This document shows positions 2,933 to 14,435 of a DNA stretch of 36,664 bases, one piece after another. Every line of letters starts with the position of its first letter. Within the stretch, counting starts at the first letter, position 1. Under the pieces are notes generated by a model. The model had not been told where the DNA came from. It worked only from the letters and a program-made list of their open reading frames with translations, and searched no databases. Made by a program: the position numbers and the translations under genes. Location: the NCBI GenBank assembly GCA_025060455.1, contig JANXBY010000059.1:1-36664 (forward strand). Direction: 5' to 3'. The stretch is from Armatimonadota bacterium (GTDB lineage Bacteria; Sysuimicrobiota; Sysuimicrobiia; Sysuimicrobiales; Sysuimicrobiaceae).

Positions 2933-4177
2933 GTGTTGAGCCGTCCAGAGGTGGTGGTGGTCGGGGCCGGGGCCGTGGGCCTGTGGTGCGCGTGCACGCT
3001 CGCAGAGGCAGGGCTCCGGGTCACCGTGTTGGAGCGAAGACACCCCGGTGCGGGCGCCTCCTGGGGCAACGCGGGCTGGGTGGTCCCCTCCCACAGCGTG
3101 CCGCTGGCGCATCCGGGCGCCCTGCGGCGCGGCCTGCGGTGGCTTCTGGATCCTGAAAGCCCCCTGTACGTGCCCCTGAGGCTGGAGGGGAGGCTTTGGA
3201 GCTGGCTGTGGCAGTTCCGCAGGTTCAGCACGCCCGCCCACGTGCGGCGCGCGGTGCCGCTCCTTGTGCGCTTGCAACGCCGGAGCGCGGAGCTGTACGG
3301 CCAGCTGGCGGCGCAGGGGCTGGAGTTCGGATGGCAACGGGCCGGGTCCATGTCCACGTTCCTCGACCCTCAGGAGTACCGCGGCTTCCTAGACGAGGTG
3401 GAACTCCTCCGACAGGAGGGCGTGGCCGCGGAGGAGATGGACGCGCCCTCCGCGCGGGAGTGGGAGCCCCTGTTGCGAGCGGGGCTGGCGGGCGCGGTGT
3501 ACTTCCCGGAGGACGGCCACCTCGACCCCGCGGCACTGGTTGCAGCCCTGGCGCAGCGGGCTGTTCAGCTGGGTGCGAAGGTGCAGAGCGGGACCGAGGT
3601 GCGGTTGAGGGCGGACGGGCGGAAGGTTACCGTGGAGACCCCGACTTGGCGCGCGCAGCCGCAGCTGTTGGTGGTGGCCGCGGGCGTGTGGAGTGCGCTG
3701 CTGCTGCGCGGGGTGGGCGTGCGCCTTCCGGTGGTGCCCGCGAAGGGCTACAGCATCACCGTGGACGGGCAGGCCGGCCCGTGTTGCCCGCTCATGTTGA
3801 CCGAGGCTCGGGTGGCCGTCACCCCTCTGCGGGGCCCGGACGGTTCACCCCGCGTGCGGCTGGCAGGGACCCTGGAGTTGGGGGTATGGGACTCTCAGCC
3901 CAGGTCCCGGCGGGTGGACGCCATCCGGAAGGCGGTAGGCCGCTACCTGCAGCTGGACCCCCAGGGCGGTGAGGTGTGGGCGGGGCTGCGGCCGTGCACT
4001 CCGGACGGGCTTCCCGTGGTGGGGCGGCCGAGGGCGCTCGACAACCTGCTGGTGGCCACCGGGCACGGGACGCTGGGGATCTCCCTGGCCCCCGCCACCG
4101 CAGAGCTGGTGGCCCAGCTGGCGCGCGGCGAAGACCCGGAGGAAGTGCGGCTCCTCCGTCCGGATCGATTCGGGTAG
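2933..4177 (+). CDS. FAD-dependent amino-acid oxidoreductase, DadA family
   Basis: The 414-residue protein starts with a dinucleotide-binding fold, VVVVGAGAVGLWCACTLAEAG (residues 7-27), followed by GASWGNAGWVVPS, a DadA-type segment, and ends with the FAD-contacting GHGTLGISLAP motif (about residues 372-382). This is the D-amino-acid dehydrogenase/D-hydroxyproline dehydrogenase group: it oxidises a D-amino or imino acid to the keto acid and passes electrons to a quinone or another carrier, usually at the inner face of the membrane. The start is a GTG at 2933, just before the beta strand; a TTG follows directly. It lies 75 bases downstream of the acyl-CoA ligase genes on the same strand, which fits amino-acid catabolism. 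Substrate cannot be read from the sequence. Confidence 0.82.
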   Translation: MLSRPEVVVVGAGAVGLWCACTLAEAGLRVTVLERRHPGAGASWGNAGWVVPSHSVPLAHPGALRRGLRWLLDPESPLYVPLRLEGRLWSWLWQFRRFSTPAHVRRAVPLLVRLQRRSAELYGQLAAQGLEFGWQRAGSMSTFLDPQEYRGFLDEVELLRQEGVAAEEMDAPSAREWEPLLRAGLAGAVYFPEDGHLDPAALVAALAQRAVQLGAKVQSGTEVRLRADGRKVTVETPTWRAQPQLLVVAAGVWSALLLRGVGVRLPVVPAKGYSITVDGQAGPCCPLMLTEARVAVTPLRGPDGSPRVRLAGTLELGVWDSQPRSRRVDAIRKAVGRYLQLDPQGGEVWAGLRPCTPDGLPVVGRPRALDNLLVATGHGTLGISLAPATAELVAQLARGEDPEEVRLLRPDRFG

Positions 4178-4183
4178 CTGCTT

Positions 4184-5317
4184 TTAGGACGCGTGCAGCT
4201 GTCTGGCCAAGTACGCTACCCGGTGCTCCACCTCCGCGGGCATGGGGTGCAGTCCAGGTGGGTAGCGGTGTCCCTGGTCCAGCAGGTGTTGGAGCCCTGC
4301 CAGGAGCAGGGCAGCGGTGAGGTCAAACGCGTCGTACGGGTCGCCACCGCCCGCGGCGAGGTTGAACATCGCACCCCCGGCGAGCAGGTACACGCGCCGG
4401 CCGGGAAGTCGGACTTCTTCCAGGTGGGGCCTCAGGCACCGGGTGGGATGGCGGCGGAGGGCCTCGGTGTCCAGCTCCTGGTTGGAGTGGCCCACGTTCA
4501 GCAGGAACGCTCCGTCCCGCAGCAGGTGGAAGTGCTCCTCCCGCAGGACGCCGTCCCGTCCGGTGGCGGTCACCACCACATCCGCCCGGGGCAGGGCCCG
4601 CTCCAGCTCCTGCACCTCGCAGCCCGCGTGGCGCGCCAGCAGCTGCCGGTCGGGCCTCAGCTCCACCACCACGGGCAGGGCACCCAAAAGCCGCGCGTAC
4701 TCCGCCACGCCCTGGCCGACAGGCCCGTAGCCCAACACCGCGACCCGCTTGCCGTACAGGGTCACGCGCGCCACGTCCAGGAACGTGATCCACGTGACCA
4801 GCCCCACCAGGTGACGGTTGTGGAGCCCCTCCTTCAAGGGGAGGGCGTTCCAGTCCAGCACGGGAAACGGGAGCACCGCCTGCTGGAGCCGCTGCACGCC
4901 CGTGCCGGTGGCCTCCATGGCCGCCCGCACCGGACCGGCCAGCTCGCGGTCCCGGGCCGCGCGGGTGCTGAGGTCTGCCCCCATCTCGCACAGGTAGTGG
5001 GGACCTTGCCGCAGGGCCCAGGCAAAGCCCGCCTCCCACTCCTCCGGGCGCATGCCTCGCCGCGCACGCACCTGGGCGCCCTGCTCGGCCAGGTAGGAGC
5101 ACACCTCGTCCCGCACGGTGGCGGGGTTGCAGCTAACCACAAGGACCTGTGCACCCCCGGCCAGCACCGCCTCGATCACCGGGACGGTCTTGAGGTCCAG
5201 GTGCACGGAGAACGCCACGCGCACGCCCCGCAGGTCCCGCCCGCGCACCGCCTCCGCGACCCGCGCGGTGAGTGGGGTCTGCTGCCGCAGGTACTCCAGC
5301 TCCTCCCGGAAGCCCAT
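4184..5317 (-). CDS. S-adenosylhomocysteine hydrolase-like protein, divergent active site
   Basis: The 377-residue product aligns along its length with adenosylhomocysteinase: HLDLKT (residues 39-44, the conserved substrate-binding His), SCNPAT, a Rossmann NAD site VLGYGPVGQGVAEYA (194-208), NVGHSNQELD (274-283) and LLAGGAMFNLAAGGGDP. True enzymes release adenosine and homocysteine. Here key positions differ: DDGGDLT is CEMGADLS (110-117), EETTTG is MEATGTG (second Glu replaced by Ala136), and the catalytic K..FDN is K162-EGL-H166-N167, so the catalytic Asp is His. The C-terminal LT..Q..Y tail is also missing. Start ATG at 5317 is chosen because GAAGG lies 9 bases upstream and a promoter (5353-5381) overlaps the alternative GTG at 5362. 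It converges with the DadA gene, six bases apart. Function is probably not standard SAH hydrolysis. Confidence 0.8.
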   Translation of the reverse strand: MGFREELEYLRQQTPLTARVAEAVRGRDLRGVRVAFSVHLDLKTVPVIEAVLAGGAQVLVVSCNPATVRDEVCSYLAEQGAQVRARRGMRPEEWEAGFAWALRQGPHYLCEMGADLSTRAARDRELAGPVRAAMEATGTGVQRLQQAVLPFPVLDWNALPLKEGLHNRHLVGLVTWITFLDVARVTLYGKRVAVLGYGPVGQGVAEYARLLGALPVVVELRPDRQLLARHAGCEVQELERALPRADVVVTATGRDGVLREEHFHLLRDGAFLLNVGHSNQELDTEALRRHPTRCLRPHLEEVRLPGRRVYLLAGGAMFNLAAGGGDPYDAFDLTAALLLAGLQHLLDQGHRYPPGLHPMPAEVEHRVAYLARQLHAS

Positions 5318-9245: not shown

Positions 9246-9990
9246 CCGTTGCACCCTCCTTTCGACCTCCATCGGGCGTGGCGTCGGTGCACCCTTCGAG
9301 CACGAGGCAACTGCCCACCCCGTGGCAGTGGGAGGCCGTCAGCACGCCCACCCGCTGACCCGGGGCTGCGTGGCGGGCGAGCCACCGCCGGGCCGCCTGC
9401 AGCCGCCGGACGGGAATGGTGCCCACACCGTATACGAAGTGCAGGCAGGAAAACCGCAGCACAGGTAGGTCGGCGTAAGCGGCCACGGTCGTACCAAGGT
9501 CCCACGCGCGCGGCGTCCGGGTGGCCGGGCACACCTGCGGCTCGGGGCAGGTGGCCGGGCAGCGCCAGGCGGCCTCGCTGAGGTAGCGCCGGTCAGCCAC
9601 GGTGACGTCGTACGCCACCGGGTAGGCCCCGGCGAGTGGCTGCCGCGACACCCGTAGGTCCGGCCGCAGCTGCCCCAGCGACTGCGCCAGCCACTCCGCA
9701 AGAACGTGCGGCGCCAGGGGAGCGGGCACCAACTGCGCGTCGTGCGGTGCTTCGGGCACGTAGCGGGTGAGGTACGCAGTCCACTCCTCGGTCACCAGCT
9801 CCGCCTGGCCGGAAAGCTCGGTGCGGGCTCTGCAGTGCGGGTTGCGGTCCACCACCACGAGCCGCCCGTACTCTACCCGGCCGGCCCGGCGGGCTCTCAC
9901 CAGCTGGCGGGCGTGGAAGCAGCCGTAGCAGCCGCCCCCGAGGATCACCACGTGGGAGGCGCGCAAGGCCTTCGGGTGCCAGCCCCTCAC
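9199..9990 (-). CDS. Uncharacterised Cys-rich Rossmann-fold protein
   Basis: The 263-residue frame opens with a nucleotide-binding fold, VVILGGGCYGCFHARQL (residues 14-30), and a second strand ending in VVVDRNPHCRA. Its middle has a compact cysteine cluster, C144-P-x-x-C148-P-E-P-x-x-x-C154-P, and the C-terminal part has H221-C-H223-G-V-G-S-C228 plus C234, together a plausible metal or iron-sulfur site. I do not know a function; from memory, similar proteins with CPxxCPEP occur in anaerobes, but I cannot confirm this. The GTG start at 9990 overlaps the upstream stop (GTGA); GTG codons at residues 14-15 are alternatives. The last 15 residues overlap the start of pepA, including its ribosome site, so the extreme C-terminus may be poorly conserved. 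Confidence 0.65.
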   Translation of the reverse strand: MRGWHPKALRASHVVILGGGCYGCFHARQLVRARRAGRVEYGRLVVVDRNPHCRARTELSGQAELVTEEWTAYLTRYVPEAPHDAQLVPAPLAPHVLAEWLAQSLGQLRPDLRVSRQPLAGAYPVAYDVTVADRRYLSEAAWRCPATCPEPQVCPATRTPRAWDLGTTVAAYADLPVLRFSCLHFVYGVGTIPVRRLQAARRWLARHAAPGQRVGVLTASHCHGVGSCLVLEGCTDATPDGGRKEGATDEGRGVRPPLEPAPL

Positions 9991-10955
9991 CCTCCGTCCA
10001 GCCCCAGGTCCAGCCTCCGGCCCACGCCGCGCTGCACCGCCCGCTCGTACGCCAGGTGGGCCGCCACCACGTCCTCCAGGGCGATGCCCTGGGAGCAGAA
10101 CAGGGTCACCTCGGAAGGCGAGGTGCGGCCCGGGGCGCTACCCGCCACCACCTCCGCCAGCTCCACGGCCCGTTCCCACCGGAACGCGCCTTCCGCGGCG
10201 GCCTGGATGAGGTCGCCGCACTCGGCCCGGGCCTGCGGCAGGTCGTCCACCACCACCCGGCCCGCCCGGGCCACGGCCTCTGCGTCCAGCTCCCGGCGGT
10301 GGGCCCAGTTGGACCCCGCGGCGTTCACGTGCACTCCGTCACGGAGCCAGCGGCCCAGCAGCACGGGCTCGCGGGAGGTGGTGATGGTGCAGACCACGTC
10401 CGCTTCCGCGACCGCCTCCTCCACGGAGGCGGCCGCCACCACGGGCAGGCGCAGCCGCTCGCCCATCTGTTGCGCGAACCGCTCGCGGCGCTCCGGTGTG
10501 CGGCTGAACACCCACGCCTGCTCCACGGGACGCACCGCGCACACCGCCTCCAGCTGCGTCTGAGCCTGCCAGCCGGTGCCGATGACCGCCACCGTGCGGG
10601 CGTCGGGGCGAGCCATGTACCGGGTGGCGAGACCTGTGGCCGCGCCGGTGCGCCGCTGGCCCAGGGTGTCCGCCTGCATCACCGCCAGCAACCGGCCCCG
10701 GCCGTCGTACAGCAGCACTAGAAAACGCCCGCCCTCCCGGGAAGTGGTGTACGCCTTCAGGCCCAGCACTTCCGGCCCGGCCCACGCCGCGGACATCACG
10801 TGCAGCACGGTCCCCGAGGGCAGCGCCGCACGCCCCCGGGGCACGTTGGCGGCCTGCCCTGCGGCCTTGTCTCGGAAGGCCTGCTCCAGGGCATCCACCA
10901 GCTCTGCCACGGACACCAAACACGCCACCTCAGACTCCGTCAGAAACAGCGTCAT
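9987..10955 (-). CDS. Ornithine cyclodeaminase/mu-crystallin family dehydrogenase
   Basis: The 322-residue protein has the family order: a substrate-binding part with LGLKAYTTSREGG (Lys67), then a Rossmann NAD(P) domain VAVIGTGWQAQTQLEAV (residues 123-139) and a C-terminal SEVTLFCSQGIALEDVVAA. Family members are ornithine cyclodeaminase, archaeal alanine dehydrogenase, ketimine reductase and related amino-acid dehydrogenases. Where ornithine cyclodeaminase has GGD with the catalytic Asp, this protein reads AAGSNWAHRRELD, with Asn, so a dehydrogenase or imine reductase is more likely than a cyclodeaminase (inference). ATG at 10955 overlaps the upstream stop (ATGA); the frame is open further upstream but the GTGs there lie inside the neighbour. 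It sits among aminopeptidases, fitting amino-acid catabolism. Confidence 0.85.
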   Translation of the reverse strand: MTLFLTESEVACLVSVAELVDALEQAFRDKAAGQAANVPRGRAALPSGTVLHVMSAAWAGPEVLGLKAYTTSREGGRFLVLLYDGRGRLLAVMQADTLGQRRTGAATGLATRYMARPDARTVAVIGTGWQAQTQLEAVCAVRPVEQAWVFSRTPERRERFAQQMGERLRLPVVAAASVEEAVAEADVVCTITTSREPVLLGRWLRDGVHVNAAGSNWAHRRELDAEAVARAGRVVVDDLPQARAECGDLIQAAAEGAFRWERAVELAEVVAGSAPGRTSPSEVTLFCSQGIALEDVVAAHLAYERAVQRGVGRRLDLGLDGG

Positions 10956-11794: not shown

Positions 11795-12867
11795 CAGGCC
11801 ACCAGCCGTTCCAGGGTGGCGGTGTCCAGCCGGCGGAGCACCGCGGTCACGAGCCGCACGGTGTTGTCGAAGTCGTCGCGGTGCAGGATGGCGTTGTGGC
11901 TGTGGATGTAGCGGACGGGCGCCCCGATGACCACCGACGGCACCCCCACCCCGAAGGTGTGGATGCGCCCGGCGTCCGTCCCGCCCCGGGCGACCCGGTC
12001 GAACTGGTACGGGATGCCCTCCGCCTCCGCGGTCTCCACCACCAGGTCCCGCAGCCGCACGTGCGGGATCATGGTGGCGTCGTACAGCAGGATCACAGGC
12101 CCTTTGCCCAGCCTGCCCTGCGCCTCGTCGGGCTTGACACCCGGCGTGTCCCCCGCGATCCCCGTGTCCAGAGCGATCCCCACGTCCGGCTGCACCAGGT
12201 GGGACGCCGTCTGCGCGCCCCGCAGCCCGACTTCCTCCTGCACGCTGCACACCCCGTACACGGTGTTGGGGTGCGGTTCGTCCTGCAGGGCCCGCAGGAT
12301 CTCCACCACCGCGGCGCAGCCGAACCGGTTGTCCCACGCCTTGGCCACCATCAGCTTGGGGTTGTGCAGCACCGCAAACGGGGAGTCGGGCACCACAGGG
12401 TCGCCTGGCCGGATCCCGAAACGCTCCGCCTCCTCGCGGCTCGTGGCGCCCACGTCGATGTACATGTCCTTGACATCCACGGGCTTTTTGCGTTCGTCCT
12501 CCTCCAGCAGGTGTGGCGGCTTGCTGCCCACCACCCCCAGCACCGGCCCTTGCCGCGTCCACACCCGGACCCGCTGCGCCAGCATCACCTGGGACCACCA
12601 CCCGCCCAGGGTCTGGAACTTCAGGTAGCCTTCGTCGGTGATGCGGGTGACGAGGAACCCGATCTCGTCCATGTGCCCGGCCACCATGACTTTGGGTGTA
12701 GGGGAAGTTCCCTCCTTGCGGGCCACCAGGCTGCCCAGCCGGTCCTGCAGGATCTCCCCGAGGGGGGTGAGGTACTTGCGGAGCACCGCCCGGACCGGCT
12801 GTTCGAAACCCGCGACGCCGGGCGCTTCTGTCAGCTCGCGGAACATCTCCACCACGCGGTCGCTCAT
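11794..12867 (-). CDS. M42 family glutamyl/leucyl-type aminopeptidase
   Basis: A 357-residue co-catalytic metallo-aminopeptidase, usually a large tetrahedral dodecamer that trims peptides in the cytoplasm. The metal and catalytic residues are visible in order: AGHMDEIGF (His and catalytic Asp), AWDNRFGC (bridging Asp), QEEVGLRGA (catalytic Glu pair), ALDTGIAGD (metal Asp) and YIHSHNA (metal His). Length is normal for M42. Start ATG 12867 has GGGAGG five bases upstream; the open frame upstream of this is a shadow of the divergent region. It is the first gene of the minus-strand operon and is divergent from an M20 dipeptidase across about 200 bases, which probably hold both promoters. Confidence 0.93.
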   Translation of the reverse strand: MSDRVVEMFRELTEAPGVAGFEQPVRAVLRKYLTPLGEILQDRLGSLVARKEGTSPTPKVMVAGHMDEIGFLVTRITDEGYLKFQTLGGWWSQVMLAQRVRVWTRQGPVLGVVGSKPPHLLEEDERKKPVDVKDMYIDVGATSREEAERFGIRPGDPVVPDSPFAVLHNPKLMVAKAWDNRFGCAAVVEILRALQDEPHPNTVYGVCSVQEEVGLRGAQTASHLVQPDVGIALDTGIAGDTPGVKPDEAQGRLGKGPVILLYDATMIPHVRLRDLVVETAEAEGIPYQFDRVARGGTDAGRIHTFGVGVPSVVIGAPVRYIHSHNAILHRDDFDNTVRLVTAVLRRLDTATLERLVA

Positions 12868-13064
12868 GGCTGCCTCCCACTCCGCGGCGCGGAGGTCGCC
12901 AACGGGCCTGTCCGGGCTTCCAGGAGCCCCTCCTGGCCCTTCCCAAAGTTTATCCCGTTCCCCTACATCTCCCCAGCGGGTGCGGACCGGCAGGGTTCGG
13001 ATGTTGCGGGGTCGTACTGGGTAGGGGCGGCGGGTTGCGACCTCTCGCACCTCAGGAGGGTCCC

Positions 13065-14435
13065 ATGGAACGGGCCATCGCGTACGCCAGAGAGCACCGC
13101 GCCAGCTTCCTGGAGGAGCTCCAGGAGTGGCTGGCGATCCCCAGCGTGAGCACGCTGCCGGAACACGGGCGGGACTGCGAGCGGGCGGCCGGGTGGCTGG
13201 CAGACCGCATGCGCCGGGCTGGCCTGCAACGGGCGGAGGTGGTCCCCTCCCGGCAACAGCACCCGTTGGTGTACGGGGAGTGGCTGGGCGCACCCGGTGC
13301 GCCCACGGTGCTGGTGTACGGCCACTACGACGTGCAGCCGGCAGACCCCCTGGAGCTTTGGGAAACTCCGCCCTTCCAGCCCACCGTGCGGGGCGACAAC
13401 CTGTACGCACGGGGCGCCTCCGACGACAAGGGCCACGTGTTTGCCACCCTCAAGGCGCTGGAAAGCCTGCTGGCCACCGACGGCCTGCCGGTCAACGTGA
13501 AGGTGCTCGTGGAGGGCGAGGAGGAGAGCAGCGGGGCGGAGATCGCGCGCTACGTACCCCGACACCGCCGGCGCCTGCGGGCGGACTGCGCCCTGGTGAT
13601 GGACTCGGGGTTCGTGGCGCCCGGTGTTCCCTCCATCACCGTGGGGCTGCGGGGCATCCTGTACACCGAGGTGGAAGTCCGCGGTCCGGCCACCGACCTG
13701 CACTCCGGCACCTTCGGGGGTGCTGCGCCCAACCCCTTCCACGAGGCCATCCGTCTGCTGGCTTCCCTGCGGGACCGTCGGGGCCGCATCCGCATCCCGG
13801 GCTTCTACCGGCCGGTGCGGGAGCCCTCCGAGGCGGAGCGGGCCGCGTGGAGGGAGCTTCCTGTAGGGGAGGAGGAGTTCGCCCGCAGCATCGGCGCCCG
13901 CGGCACCGTGGGGGAGGAGGGCTACTCCCTGCTGGAGCGGCTGTGGGCCCGGCCCACCCTGGAGGTCCACGGCATAGCCGGCGGGTTCACCGGACCGGGG
14001 GCCAAGACGGTCTTGCCCGCTCGGTGCGTGGCCAAGGTGAGCATGCGGCTGGTCCCGGATCAGAACCCCGACCGGGTGTACCGTGCCTTCGAACGGTACC
14101 TCCTGCGCAACGTCCACCCCGCGTACGAGGTCATGGTCCGCAAGCTTCACACGGGCCGGCCCTGGATGGTGTCCCCGGAGGAGCCGGCGGTGCAGGCCGC
14201 GGCACGGGCGTGGTCCGCCGCGTACGGAGCGCCGGCCCGGTTCGTCCGGATGGGCGGTTCCGTACCGGTGGTGGACCTGTTCAGCCGCGTGCTGGGCCAG
14301 CCGGTGGTGGTGACGGGATTCGGGCTTCCCGACGACAACCTGCACGCGCCCAACGAGAAGGTGAACCTGCCGCTGCTCTGGGGTGGGGTGGAGGCGGTGA
14401 TCCGCTTCCTCCACGAGGTCCGCGCGCTGCGCTGA
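13065..14435 (+). CDS. M20 family dipeptidase
   Basis: The 456-residue protein is a two-zinc M20 peptidase close to the CNDP-like dipeptidases. Visible sites are VLVYGHYDVQPAD (metal His and catalytic Asp), RGASDDKGHVFATLKALE (bridging Asp), EGEEESSGAE (catalytic Glu and metal Glu), MDSGF (metal Asp) and, near the end, the final His in DDNLHAPNEKV. The dimerisation lid domain lies between (residues about 190-330). It would split dipeptides left by the neighbouring aminopeptidases. ATG 13065 has AGGAGG at good spacing; an upstream start at 13035 lacks one. It is separated from nadE by 40 bases. Confidence 0.92.
   Translation: MERAIAYAREHRASFLEELQEWLAIPSVSTLPEHGRDCERAAGWLADRMRRAGLQRAEVVPSRQQHPLVYGEWLGAPGAPTVLVYGHYDVQPADPLELWETPPFQPTVRGDNLYARGASDDKGHVFATLKALESLLATDGLPVNVKVLVEGEEESSGAEIARYVPRHRRRLRADCALVMDSGFVAPGVPSITVGLRGILYTEVEVRGPATDLHSGTFGGAAPNPFHEAIRLLASLRDRRGRIRIPGFYRPVREPSEAERAAWRELPVGEEEFARSIGARGTVGEEGYSLLERLWARPTLEVHGIAGGFTGPGAKTVLPARCVAKVSMRLVPDQNPDRVYRAFERYLLRNVHPAYEVMVRKLHTGRPWMVSPEEPAVQAAARAWSAAYGAPARFVRMGGSVPVVDLFSRVLGQPVVVTGFGLPDDNLHAPNEKVNLPLLWGGVEAVIRFLHEVRALR

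What the first reader, a model, noticed from the sequence alone, without database searches (positions are those of the whole stretch)
4184..5317. SAHH homolog with a rebuilt active site and no C-terminal tail
The NAD fold, His39, Lys162 and Asn167 are kept, but the second Glu of EETTTG is Ala136, the catalytic Asp before Asn167 is His166, and the DDGGDLT loop is CEMGADLS. The family tail is missing. This looks like a new oxidoreductase/hydrolase activity derived from SAH hydrolase, next to amino-acid catabolism genes rather than methionine-cycle genes.
Basis: partly seen in the sequence, partly recalled or inferred. Interest (0 to 1): 0.55.

Follow-up and report, generated by a model that had tools for sequence, protein, structure and literature searches.

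The report
SAH-hydrolase look-alike with rebuilt active site
This gene encodes an enzyme shaped like S-adenosylhomocysteine hydrolase that has exchanged residues needed for that reaction; the same exchange is fixed in relatives from three bacterial phyla, so it looks like an old, unrecognised enzyme family that databases probably misname adenosylhomocysteinase.

Summary
Window 4184-5317, minus strand, encodes a 377-aa protein with the S-adenosylhomocysteine hydrolase (SAHH) fold (AlphaFold2 pLDDT 92; Z 46 to human SAHH). Against human SAHH, H55, T157, K186, N191, H301 and the NAD motif are kept; D131 is Met, E156 Ala, D190 His, H353 Asp, and the C-terminal tail is absent. This is not one odd gene: in 22 of 22 aligned members (window included) from Armatimonadota, Actinomycetota and Klebsiella, position 190 is His, 131 Met/Ile and 156 never Glu. 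They form one clade (support 100/100) outside the canonical SAHHs sampled. I call it the HNR family, after K-x3-H-N-R. The host genome has a separate canonical SAHH; a Klebsiella record has MTA/SAH nucleosidase and LuxS instead. So HNR proteins are unlikely to recycle SAH.

Best reading: the family kept the half of SAHH that oxidises a hydroxyl with NAD and lost the C4' acid/base, the 2'-OH contacts and the cap over NAD, suggesting an NAD(H)-dependent oxidoreductase or epimerase on another, possibly anionic, substrate. The substrate is unknown; neighbours hint weakly at D-amino-acid metabolism. Nothing has been assayed. I rate it a new variant of a known kind.

The parts
4184..5317 (-). HNR-family SAHH-fold gene, 377 aa plus stop
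   Evidence: translation; Pfam; AlphaFold2 and PDB comparison; alignment of 22 members
5201..5203 (-). codon of H39 (= human H55), kept in 22 of 22 family rows
5189..5197 (-). codons of D41-L42-K43 (= human T57..E59); HxDxK in 17 of 22 family rows
   Evidence: compare HxTxE and HxExK in PMC10978960
4982..4984 (-). codon of M112 (= human D131, the C4' acid/base); Met 21, Ile 1 of 22
   Evidence: role of D131 from PMC4647836
4910..4912 (-). codon of A136 (= human E156, a 2'-OH ligand); Ala 18, Met 2, Val 1, Thr 1 of 22
4907..4909 (-). codon of T137 (= human T157, a 3'-OH ligand), Thr in 22 of 22 rows
4814..4834 (-). K162-x3-H166-N167-R168 motif (= human K186, D190, N191, L192); K, H, N and R in 22 of 22 rows
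4715..4732 (-). Rossmann NAD motif, G196-x-G198-x-x-G201
   Evidence: the acidic residue E219 (= E243) is kept, which points to NAD rather than NADP (inference)
4484..4489 (-). codons of H277-S278 (= human H301-F302); His 22 of 22, Ser 21 of 22 where canonical has Phe 20 of 20
4340..4342 (-). codon of D326 (= human H353); Asp in 17 of 22 rows
2933..4177 (+). convergent neighbour: FAD-dependent D-amino-acid-dehydrogenase-like protein (DAO fold)
   Evidence: PRK00711 250 bits, below its cut-off of 383; conserved beside the gene in L033, L034 and L006
5477..6292 (+). divergent neighbour: Tat-signal-like start (by eye), then Putative cyclase / arylformamidase-like domain
   Evidence: PF04199; start read; homologue beside the gene in L033, L034, L006 and, one gene further off, L035

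Best explanation
The gene encodes a member of an old family (here called HNR) that shares the SAHH fold but probably does not hydrolyse S-adenosylhomocysteine. Shown by sequence: the residues that SAHH uses to oxidise the 3'-hydroxyl with NAD (K186, T157, N191, the NAD motif) and the two histidines near the 5' group (H55, H301) are kept. The residue that moves the C4' proton (D131), the pair that holds the 2'-OH (E156, D190) and the tail that caps NAD on the neighbouring subunit are gone. Inferred: without the C4' base the elimination and water-addition steps should fail, so the protein most likely performs only the redox half. It would be an NAD(H)-dependent dehydrogenase, or an epimerase/racemase that oxidises and re-reduces, with K162 and T137 handling the hydroxyl proton and H166 helping K162 or the substrate. 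Losing three carboxylates and gaining a histidine at the ribose end suggests a substrate with an anionic group there. Losing the cap would let NAD come and go, as a dehydrogenase needs. Substrate and pathway are unknown.
For: Active-site table: 22 of 22 HNR rows have H at 190, M/I at 131, non-Glu at 156, and keep H55, T157, K186, N191, H301; 20 of 20 canonical rows have D131 and D190, 19 of 20 E156. Roles in mouse SAHH (passages of PMC4647836): E156+D190 bind 2'-OH, T157+K186 bind 3'-OH and K186 is its acid/base, D131 donates the proton to C4'. In the SAHH homologue AgmF, D129A and D188A (read here as the D131 and D190 equivalents) abolish activity (passages of PMC8599513). One clade, 100/100. 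Fold and NAD domain kept: pLDDT 92.2, Z 50.2 to 7r37 and 46.4 to human 1li4. Probably not for SAH recycling: 12 of 12 genomes of the phylum that hold the gene also hold a second, SAHH-like match of 34-38% identity, of which the 6 aligned have all canonical residues (the other 6 were not aligned, and the one in G038 is partial); the same holds for the 4 actinobacterial genomes checked. The Klebsiella record CP125156 has MTA/SAH nucleosidase and LuxS, and its only AdoHcyase_NAD match over the cut-off is the HNR gene. The tail in SAHH contacts NAD of the adjacent subunit (PMC10978960 section 13); the 22 HNR rows have 2-22 residues after the P387 column.
Against: No assay and no ligand-bound structure. 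The two 5'-side histidines (H55, H301), which in SAHH serve elimination and water addition, are kept in 22 of 22 rows, which a pure dehydrogenase would not obviously need. E111, next to M112, is Glu or Asp in 22 of 22 rows and could reach the proton. Tail loss is also seen in other SAHH-like groups, among them VxExK proteins that keep D131/E156/D190, so it does not by itself mean exchangeable NAD. Gene neighbourhoods differ between lineages. The tree program warned that long branches meet, HNR rows among them.
Confidence: 0.45

Rival explanations
1. It is still an eliminase/hydrolase of a thioether- or hydroxyl-bearing nucleoside, but of a different one (for example an inosyl, 2'-deoxy or otherwise altered nucleoside). 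E111 or H166 supplies the missing acid/base, and D41/K43 read a 6-oxopurine as E57/K59 do in SIH-preferring enzymes.
For: H55 and H301, the 5'-side residues, are in 22 of 22 rows. 17 of 22 rows carry HxDxK, close to the HxExK motif of S-inosylhomocysteine-preferring enzymes (PMC10978960 sections 9 and 11). AgmF shows that the scaffold can take a new nucleoside (passages of PMC8599513).
Against: D129 and D188 are essential in AgmF and their equivalents are missing in 22 of 22 rows. HxDxK is absent in the 5 Nocardioides-type rows, which share the same catalytic changes.
Confidence: 0.27
2. It is a pseudoenzyme: a non-catalytic NAD(H) or nucleoside sensor, comparable to IRBIT among animal SAHH relatives (that comparison is from memory).
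For: Catalytic acids are lost while the fold and NAD motif are kept.
Against: K162, H166, H39, H277 and T137 are the same in 22 of 22 rows from three phyla, more than a pure binding role needs. No partner gene recurs across the lineages examined.
Confidence: 0.13
3. It is an ordinary SAHH/SIHH, as annotated in databases ('adenosylhomocysteinase', Klebsiella WP_004184774).
For: Same fold; 22-32% identity to the solved SAHHs listed; NCBIfam adenosylhomocysteinase models match it (best 255.5 bits).
Against: Below the curated cut-offs (255.5 against 275; 209.2 against 497.6). It lies outside the canonical clade, three catalytic positions are changed, and the genomes examined carry another SAH-disposal route.
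Confidence: 0.07
4. It is an NAD-dependent amino-acid or hydroxy-acid enzyme in a D-amino-acid pathway (a specific form of the best explanation, so its odds overlap with it).
For: In 6 of 11 Armatimonadota loci a GNAT-like gene and a TIGR01928 (o-succinylbenzoate synthase model; N-acylamino-acid racemases fall in it, recalled) gene follow on the same strand. In L035 they follow directly, and the longest open frames of HNR and GNAT overlap by 16 bases. menD is below its cut-off in the three family-f4 genomes checked that have the pair (G014, G017, G018), so there menaquinone is an unlikely purpose. In the window and 3 close relatives (L033, L034, L006) the neighbour is a D-amino-acid-dehydrogenase-like gene.
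Against: In 5 of the 6 loci other genes lie between (nicotinate phosphoribosyltransferase, usually also CorA). G035 and G005, which also have the pair, do have menD over cut-off, and G018 is only 80% complete. The GNAT label rests on one weak Pfam match (L040) and on similarity; L035 gave no Pfam match. Klebsiella and actinobacterial neighbours are unrelated.
Confidence: 0.15

Closest known systems
Canonical S-adenosylhomocysteine hydrolase (AhcY/SAHH; human 1li4, Thermotoga 3x2f)
   Same: Whole fold (Z 46.4 and 49.2, 377 and 376 residues aligned), NAD domain, H55, T157, K186, N191, H301.
   Different: D131 to Met, E156 to Ala, D190 to His, H353 to Asp, M358 to Phe, F362 to Ala; no C-terminal tail; separate clade.
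Archaeal and archaeal-type SAHH/SIHH with the HxExK motif (Pyrococcus furiosus 7r37, Methanococcus maripaludis 7r3a)
   Same: Among the best structural matches (Z 50.2 and 49.9); HxDxK resembles HxExK; a short C-terminus.
   Different: They keep the catalytic acids (the two rows printed show D-D-G-A-D, E-E-T-T-T and K-x3-D-N-R) and have a shortened C-terminus rather than none (PMC10978960).
AgmF, the angustmycin A dehydratase (PMC8599513)
   Same: An SAHH homologue that does not use SAH and has NAD tightly bound.
   Different: AgmF keeps H56, D129, K184, D188 and H299, all essential (passages); the HNR family lacks two of these five. The AgmF sequence was not held here and was not aligned.
D-2-hydroxyacid dehydrogenase superfamily, including the NAD-dependent racemase PbfF (PMC12366243)
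   Same: Related NAD domain: PF02826 scores 43.4 bits. A precedent for an NAD-dependent racemase in a dehydrogenase fold (passages).
   Different: SAHH-type substrate domain; the PF02826 match covers only residues 184-287.

Membership tests
Canonical SAHH (AhcY) | SAHH fold, NAD-binding domain and Pfam AdoHcyase families | tested here: met
   PF00670 90.1 bits (cut-off 27), PF05221 36.7 bits (cut-off 25); Z 46.4 to human 1li4 over 377 residues
Canonical SAHH (AhcY) | Curated NCBIfam equivalog score | tested here: not met
   NF004005 255.5 against 275; TIGR00936 209.2 against 497.6
Canonical SAHH (AhcY) | Catalytic Asp131 and Asp190 (human numbering) | tested here: not met
   M112 and H166; 0 of 22 family rows have either Asp, 20 of 20 canonical rows have both
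Canonical SAHH (AhcY) | Glu156, ligand of the 2'-OH | tested here: not met
   A136; 0 of 22 family rows, 19 of 20 canonical rows
Canonical SAHH (AhcY) | His55, Thr157, Lys186, Asn191, His301 | tested here: met
   22 of 22 family rows
Canonical SAHH (AhcY) | HxTxE(Q) base motif | tested here: not met
   HLDLK in the window; HxDxK in 17 of 22 rows, other in 5
Canonical SAHH (AhcY) | C-terminal tail that covers NAD of the next subunit | tested here: not met
   17 residues after the P387 column; 2-22 in the family
Canonical SAHH (AhcY) | Falls in the canonical clade | tested here: not met
   HNR clade 100/100, canonical clade 99/98
Canonical SAHH (AhcY) | Hydrolysis of SAH | not testable with these tools
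   needs purified protein
S-inosylhomocysteine hydrolase (HxExK type) | HxExK base motif | tested here: inconclusive
   HxDxK: the Lys is kept and Asp stands for Glu in 17 of 22 rows
S-inosylhomocysteine hydrolase (HxExK type) | Catalytic acids D131, E156, D190 | tested here: not met
AgmF-type dehydratase | H56, D129, K184, D188, H299 all essential | tested here: not met
   The equivalents of D129 and D188 are Met and His (residues from passages of PMC8599513); mapped through human numbering, AgmF itself not aligned
AgmF-type dehydratase | Dehydration of psicofuranine | not testable with these tools
   needs an assay
D-2-hydroxyacid dehydrogenase family | Family catalytic triad (Arg, Glu/Asp, His; recalled) | not tested
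   Only the NAD domain matches PF02826 (43.4 bits, residues 184-287)

The most novel reading that the evidence does not exclude
An unrecognised enzyme family, marked by K-x3-H-N-R, in which the SAHH scaffold works as an NAD(H)-dependent oxidoreductase or racemase of an anionic substrate (possibly in D-amino-acid metabolism). It would have kept the redox half-reaction of SAHH, and it is carried by organisms from Armatimonadota to Klebsiella under the wrong name.
Probability: 0.25. Interest if true: 0.7.

Novelty: new variant of a known kind. Interest (0 to 1): 0.5.

Why it matters
SAHH is a textbook enzyme with an unusual internal redox cycle, and NCBIfam names its homologues adenosylhomocysteinase by default. 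Here is a clade, found in three phyla, in which residues for one half of that cycle are gone and those for the other half remain. That gives a natural test of which residues do what, and a case where automatic annotation may add a false SAH-recycling step to metabolic models, for example of Klebsiella, whose examined record already has MTA/SAH nucleosidase and LuxS. If the redox-only reading holds, it would show how a redox-neutral hydrolase fold and an NAD dehydrogenase can pass into each other.

Tried and rejected
Considered and rejected or weakened. (1) A degraded duplicate of the host's own SAHH: rejected, because the family is a separate clade and dN/dS is 0.20-0.25 in 4 pairs, though the host's canonical SAHH is more constrained (0.087, one pair). 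(2) The SAH-disposal enzyme of its host: unlikely. (3) A fixed operon: not seen across lineages. In Klebsiella it stands between an HPP-family gene and cobT/cobS on the opposite strand. In actinobacterial loci L071, L072 and L074 a FAD-enzyme gene lies beside or near it; only the L072 copy was scanned (geranylgeranyl reductase family, 182.5 bits), the others are its homologues. CorA and nicotinate phosphoribosyltransferase are beside it in 5 of 11 Armatimonadota loci, and the phosphoribosyltransferase alone in a sixth. A link to nicotinate metabolism (NAPRTase there, cobT in Klebsiella) was noticed and judged coincidence. (4) Phage-borne copies: the viral contig scan found none (66 pattern stretches, none confirmed). 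The phage collection has 4 records with matches of 27-40% identity, not examined further. (5) E. coli: no match to the Klebsiella gene in a collection of 5,426 genomes by blastn, which would miss DNA under about 65-70% identity. (7) Paper searches (listings, then passages or sections of four papers) brought up AgmF and archaeal SIHH but nothing on this clade; only open-licence papers are held, so this is weak evidence of absence. (8) The search for papers on the succinyltransferase/racemase pair (listing only) gave nothing that I used; that pathway is cited from memory.

Papers: PMC10978960, outline and sections 9, 11, 13; PMC8599513, passages; PMC4647836, passages; PMC12366243, passages.

Rows left out: Yersinia plasmid copy L054 (open frame interrupted), L056 (same gene as L010), and L001-L005, L007, L008, L013-L024 and similar loci that repeat genes already in the set. 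L062 was counted as canonical although it lacks E156 and H353. In one search, sequences were cut at 460 residues, which clips long tails; of the four actinobacterial canonical rows (L078-L081) at least three end early for that reason, so the shortest canonical counts (22, 25, 31, 31) should be read with that in mind. One search scored only the best 5 candidates per genome, and its list of matches was cut; I read the 15 best loci.

Full report
What is there. Window 4184-5317 on the minus strand encodes 377 residues. The convergent gene (2933-4177, +) is a D-amino-acid-dehydrogenase-like FAD protein. The divergent gene begins at about 5477 (+) and is a cyclase/arylformamidase-like protein. The protein matches Pfam AdoHcyase_NAD and AdoHcyase above their cut-offs but falls short of the cut-off of each of the five NCBIfam adenosylhomocysteinase models that match it; the nearest are NF004005, 255.5 against 275, and TIGR00936, 209.2 against 497.6.

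Structure. AlphaFold2 with an alignment of 10 rows gives mean pLDDT 92.2 and pTM 0.88. The 50 rows listed by each structure comparison are SAHHs or entries titled only 'hydrolase': Foldseek TM-score 0.90-0.93 (query-normalised) for the 13 best rows, VIA-align Z 50.2 (2.2 A, 377 residues, 32% identity) to Pyrococcus furiosus SAHH with inosine and Z 46.4 to human SAHH.

Active site. With human numbering (sequence verified against 1li4) the map is H39=H55, D41=T57, K43=E59, E111=D130, M112=D131, E135=E155, A136=E156, T137=T157, K162=K186, H166=D190, N167=N191, E219=E243, H277=H301, D326=H353, F331=M358, A335=F362. In mouse SAHH, E156 and D190 hold the 2'-OH, T157 and K186 the 3'-OH, and H55, D131 and H301 the 5'-OH; D131 handles the C4' proton and K186 the 3'-oxygen proton (passages of PMC4647836). 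So the protein keeps the set for NAD oxidation at the 3'-OH, keeps the two histidines on the 5' side, and loses the C4' acid/base and both 2'-OH ligands.

Family. The change is not private. All 12 also hold a second match of 34-38%, with a clear gap between the two; 6 of those second matches were aligned and have the canonical residues, 6 were not aligned. Named relatives are in Nocardioides, Humibacillus and an Actinomycetota MAG (42-46%), each with a canonical SAHH as well. In an actinobacterial order search, 6 of 391 genomes hold the motif among the 15 best loci, which I read. Klebsiella pneumoniae has a member at 41.6% (WP_004184774, annotated adenosylhomocysteinase; 2 records in the plasmid collection), and a Yersinia frederiksenii plasmid has an interrupted one. 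Across 22 aligned members: H at 190 in 22, M/I at 131 in 22, E156 in 0, K186, N191, H55, H301 and T157 in 22. Across 20 canonical rows: D131 20, D190 20, E156 19. Positions that also separate the two sets include S278 (F302), G323 (A350), F331 (M358) and W176 (I200). I call the group HNR; the name is mine.

Tree. Maximum likelihood on 54 rows puts the 22 HNR rows on one side of a branch (100/100). On the other side are the canonical SAHHs (99/98), two other divergent SAHH-like groups and two single HxExK rows. The program warned that some long branches meet, among them HNR ones, and the root is a midpoint, so the direction of descent is not shown. Within the genus dN/dS is 0.20-0.25 in 4 pairs; the host's canonical SAHH gives 0.087 in one pair. 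The gene is therefore kept by selection, under looser constraint.

Physiology. The host genome (95% complete) has the canonical SAHH (G000:C51) and no match to MTA/SAH nucleosidase or LuxS. The Klebsiella record CP125156 has both of these, and its HNR gene is the only AdoHcyase_NAD match over the cut-off. HNR proteins thus occur with either SAH route, which suggests that they serve neither.

Head group. 17 of 22 rows have D57, K59 and D353 together (HxDxK ... G-D); the 5 Nocardioides-type rows have none of the three, while the catalytic residues are the same. I read this as one chemistry with two head groups. HxDxK recalls HxExK, whose Lys binds O6 of hypoxanthine (PMC10978960 sections 9 and 11), so a 6-oxopurine remains possible for the 17.

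Tail. SAHH tails reach over NAD of the next subunit (PMC10978960 section 13); HNR proteins have 2-22 residues after the column of human P387. Loss of the cap fits exchangeable NAD, but VxExK proteins with intact acids lack it too.

Neighbourhood. In 6 of 11 Armatimonadota loci a GNAT-like gene and a TIGR01928 gene (331.9-363.4 bits for the four scanned, cut-off 200.65) follow on the same strand, directly in L035 and after one or more other genes in five. The GNAT label rests on one weak Pfam match (L040) and on similarity. Of the six genomes checked for menD, three of family f4 have the pair but no menD over cut-off, so there the TIGR01928 gene is more likely an N-acylamino-acid racemase (inference; the succinyl-D-amino-acid pathway is recalled). 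G000, G035 and G005 do have menD, so in G035 and G005 the gene may serve menaquinone. With the D-amino-acid-dehydrogenase neighbour of the window genus, this is a weak pointer to D-amino-acid metabolism. The other lineages examined do not share it.

Conclusion. Solid: an SAHH-fold clade in three phyla with a fixed, rebuilt active site, whose examined hosts have another way to dispose of SAH. Inferred: NAD(H)-dependent oxidoreductase or epimerase. Open: the substrate. The precedent AgmF changed substrate but kept all five essential residues (passages of PMC8599513); this family goes further.

Noticed in passing
L066-L070 and L076 10200-11435 (VxExK group, 6 rows): Another divergent SAHH-like clade: 6 of 6 rows keep D131, E156 and D190 but have V at 55 and G at 301, i.e. 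they have lost both 5'-side histidines. L067 runs on into an amidohydrolase-like sequence (by eye).
   Followed up: partly
L063, L064, L065, L085 (HxExK_N group, 4 rows): A third divergent clade with D131 to Asn, D190 to Glu and HxExK in 4 of 4 rows. In Vibrio nigripulchritudo plasmid L085 it lies between nucleoside hydrolase and adenosine deaminase/ribokinase genes.
   Followed up: partly
L076 8923-11435 (Roseateles sp. XES5 plasmid NZ_CP084754): Two SAHH homologues of different groups in tandem, inside a cluster with sugar-type ABC transporters, an amidohydrolase and a nucleoside hydrolase: a candidate pathway for uptake and breakdown of a nucleoside.
   Followed up: no
L040 10434-14357 (genome G018): The open frame 12051-13346 joins the start of the GNAT-like gene to the end of the nicotinate phosphoribosyltransferase gene, with near-identical copies beside it: a local tandem duplication or an assembly error.
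   Followed up: no
L054 about 9642-10920 (Yersinia frederiksenii plasmid NZ_MT039226): An unannotated HNR-family copy at 72% to the Klebsiella protein, with its reading frame interrupted.
   Followed up: no
L055 (CP125156.1): A 5.37-Mb Klebsiella record filed as a plasmid; by its size and gene number it looks like the chromosome.
   Followed up: no
L036-L038 and L040-L042, around the HNR gene: An AhpC/TSA-type peroxiredoxin gene on the opposite strand in 6 loci and, in 5 of them, CorA plus nicotinate phosphoribosyltransferase on the same strand, closely spaced.
   Followed up: partly
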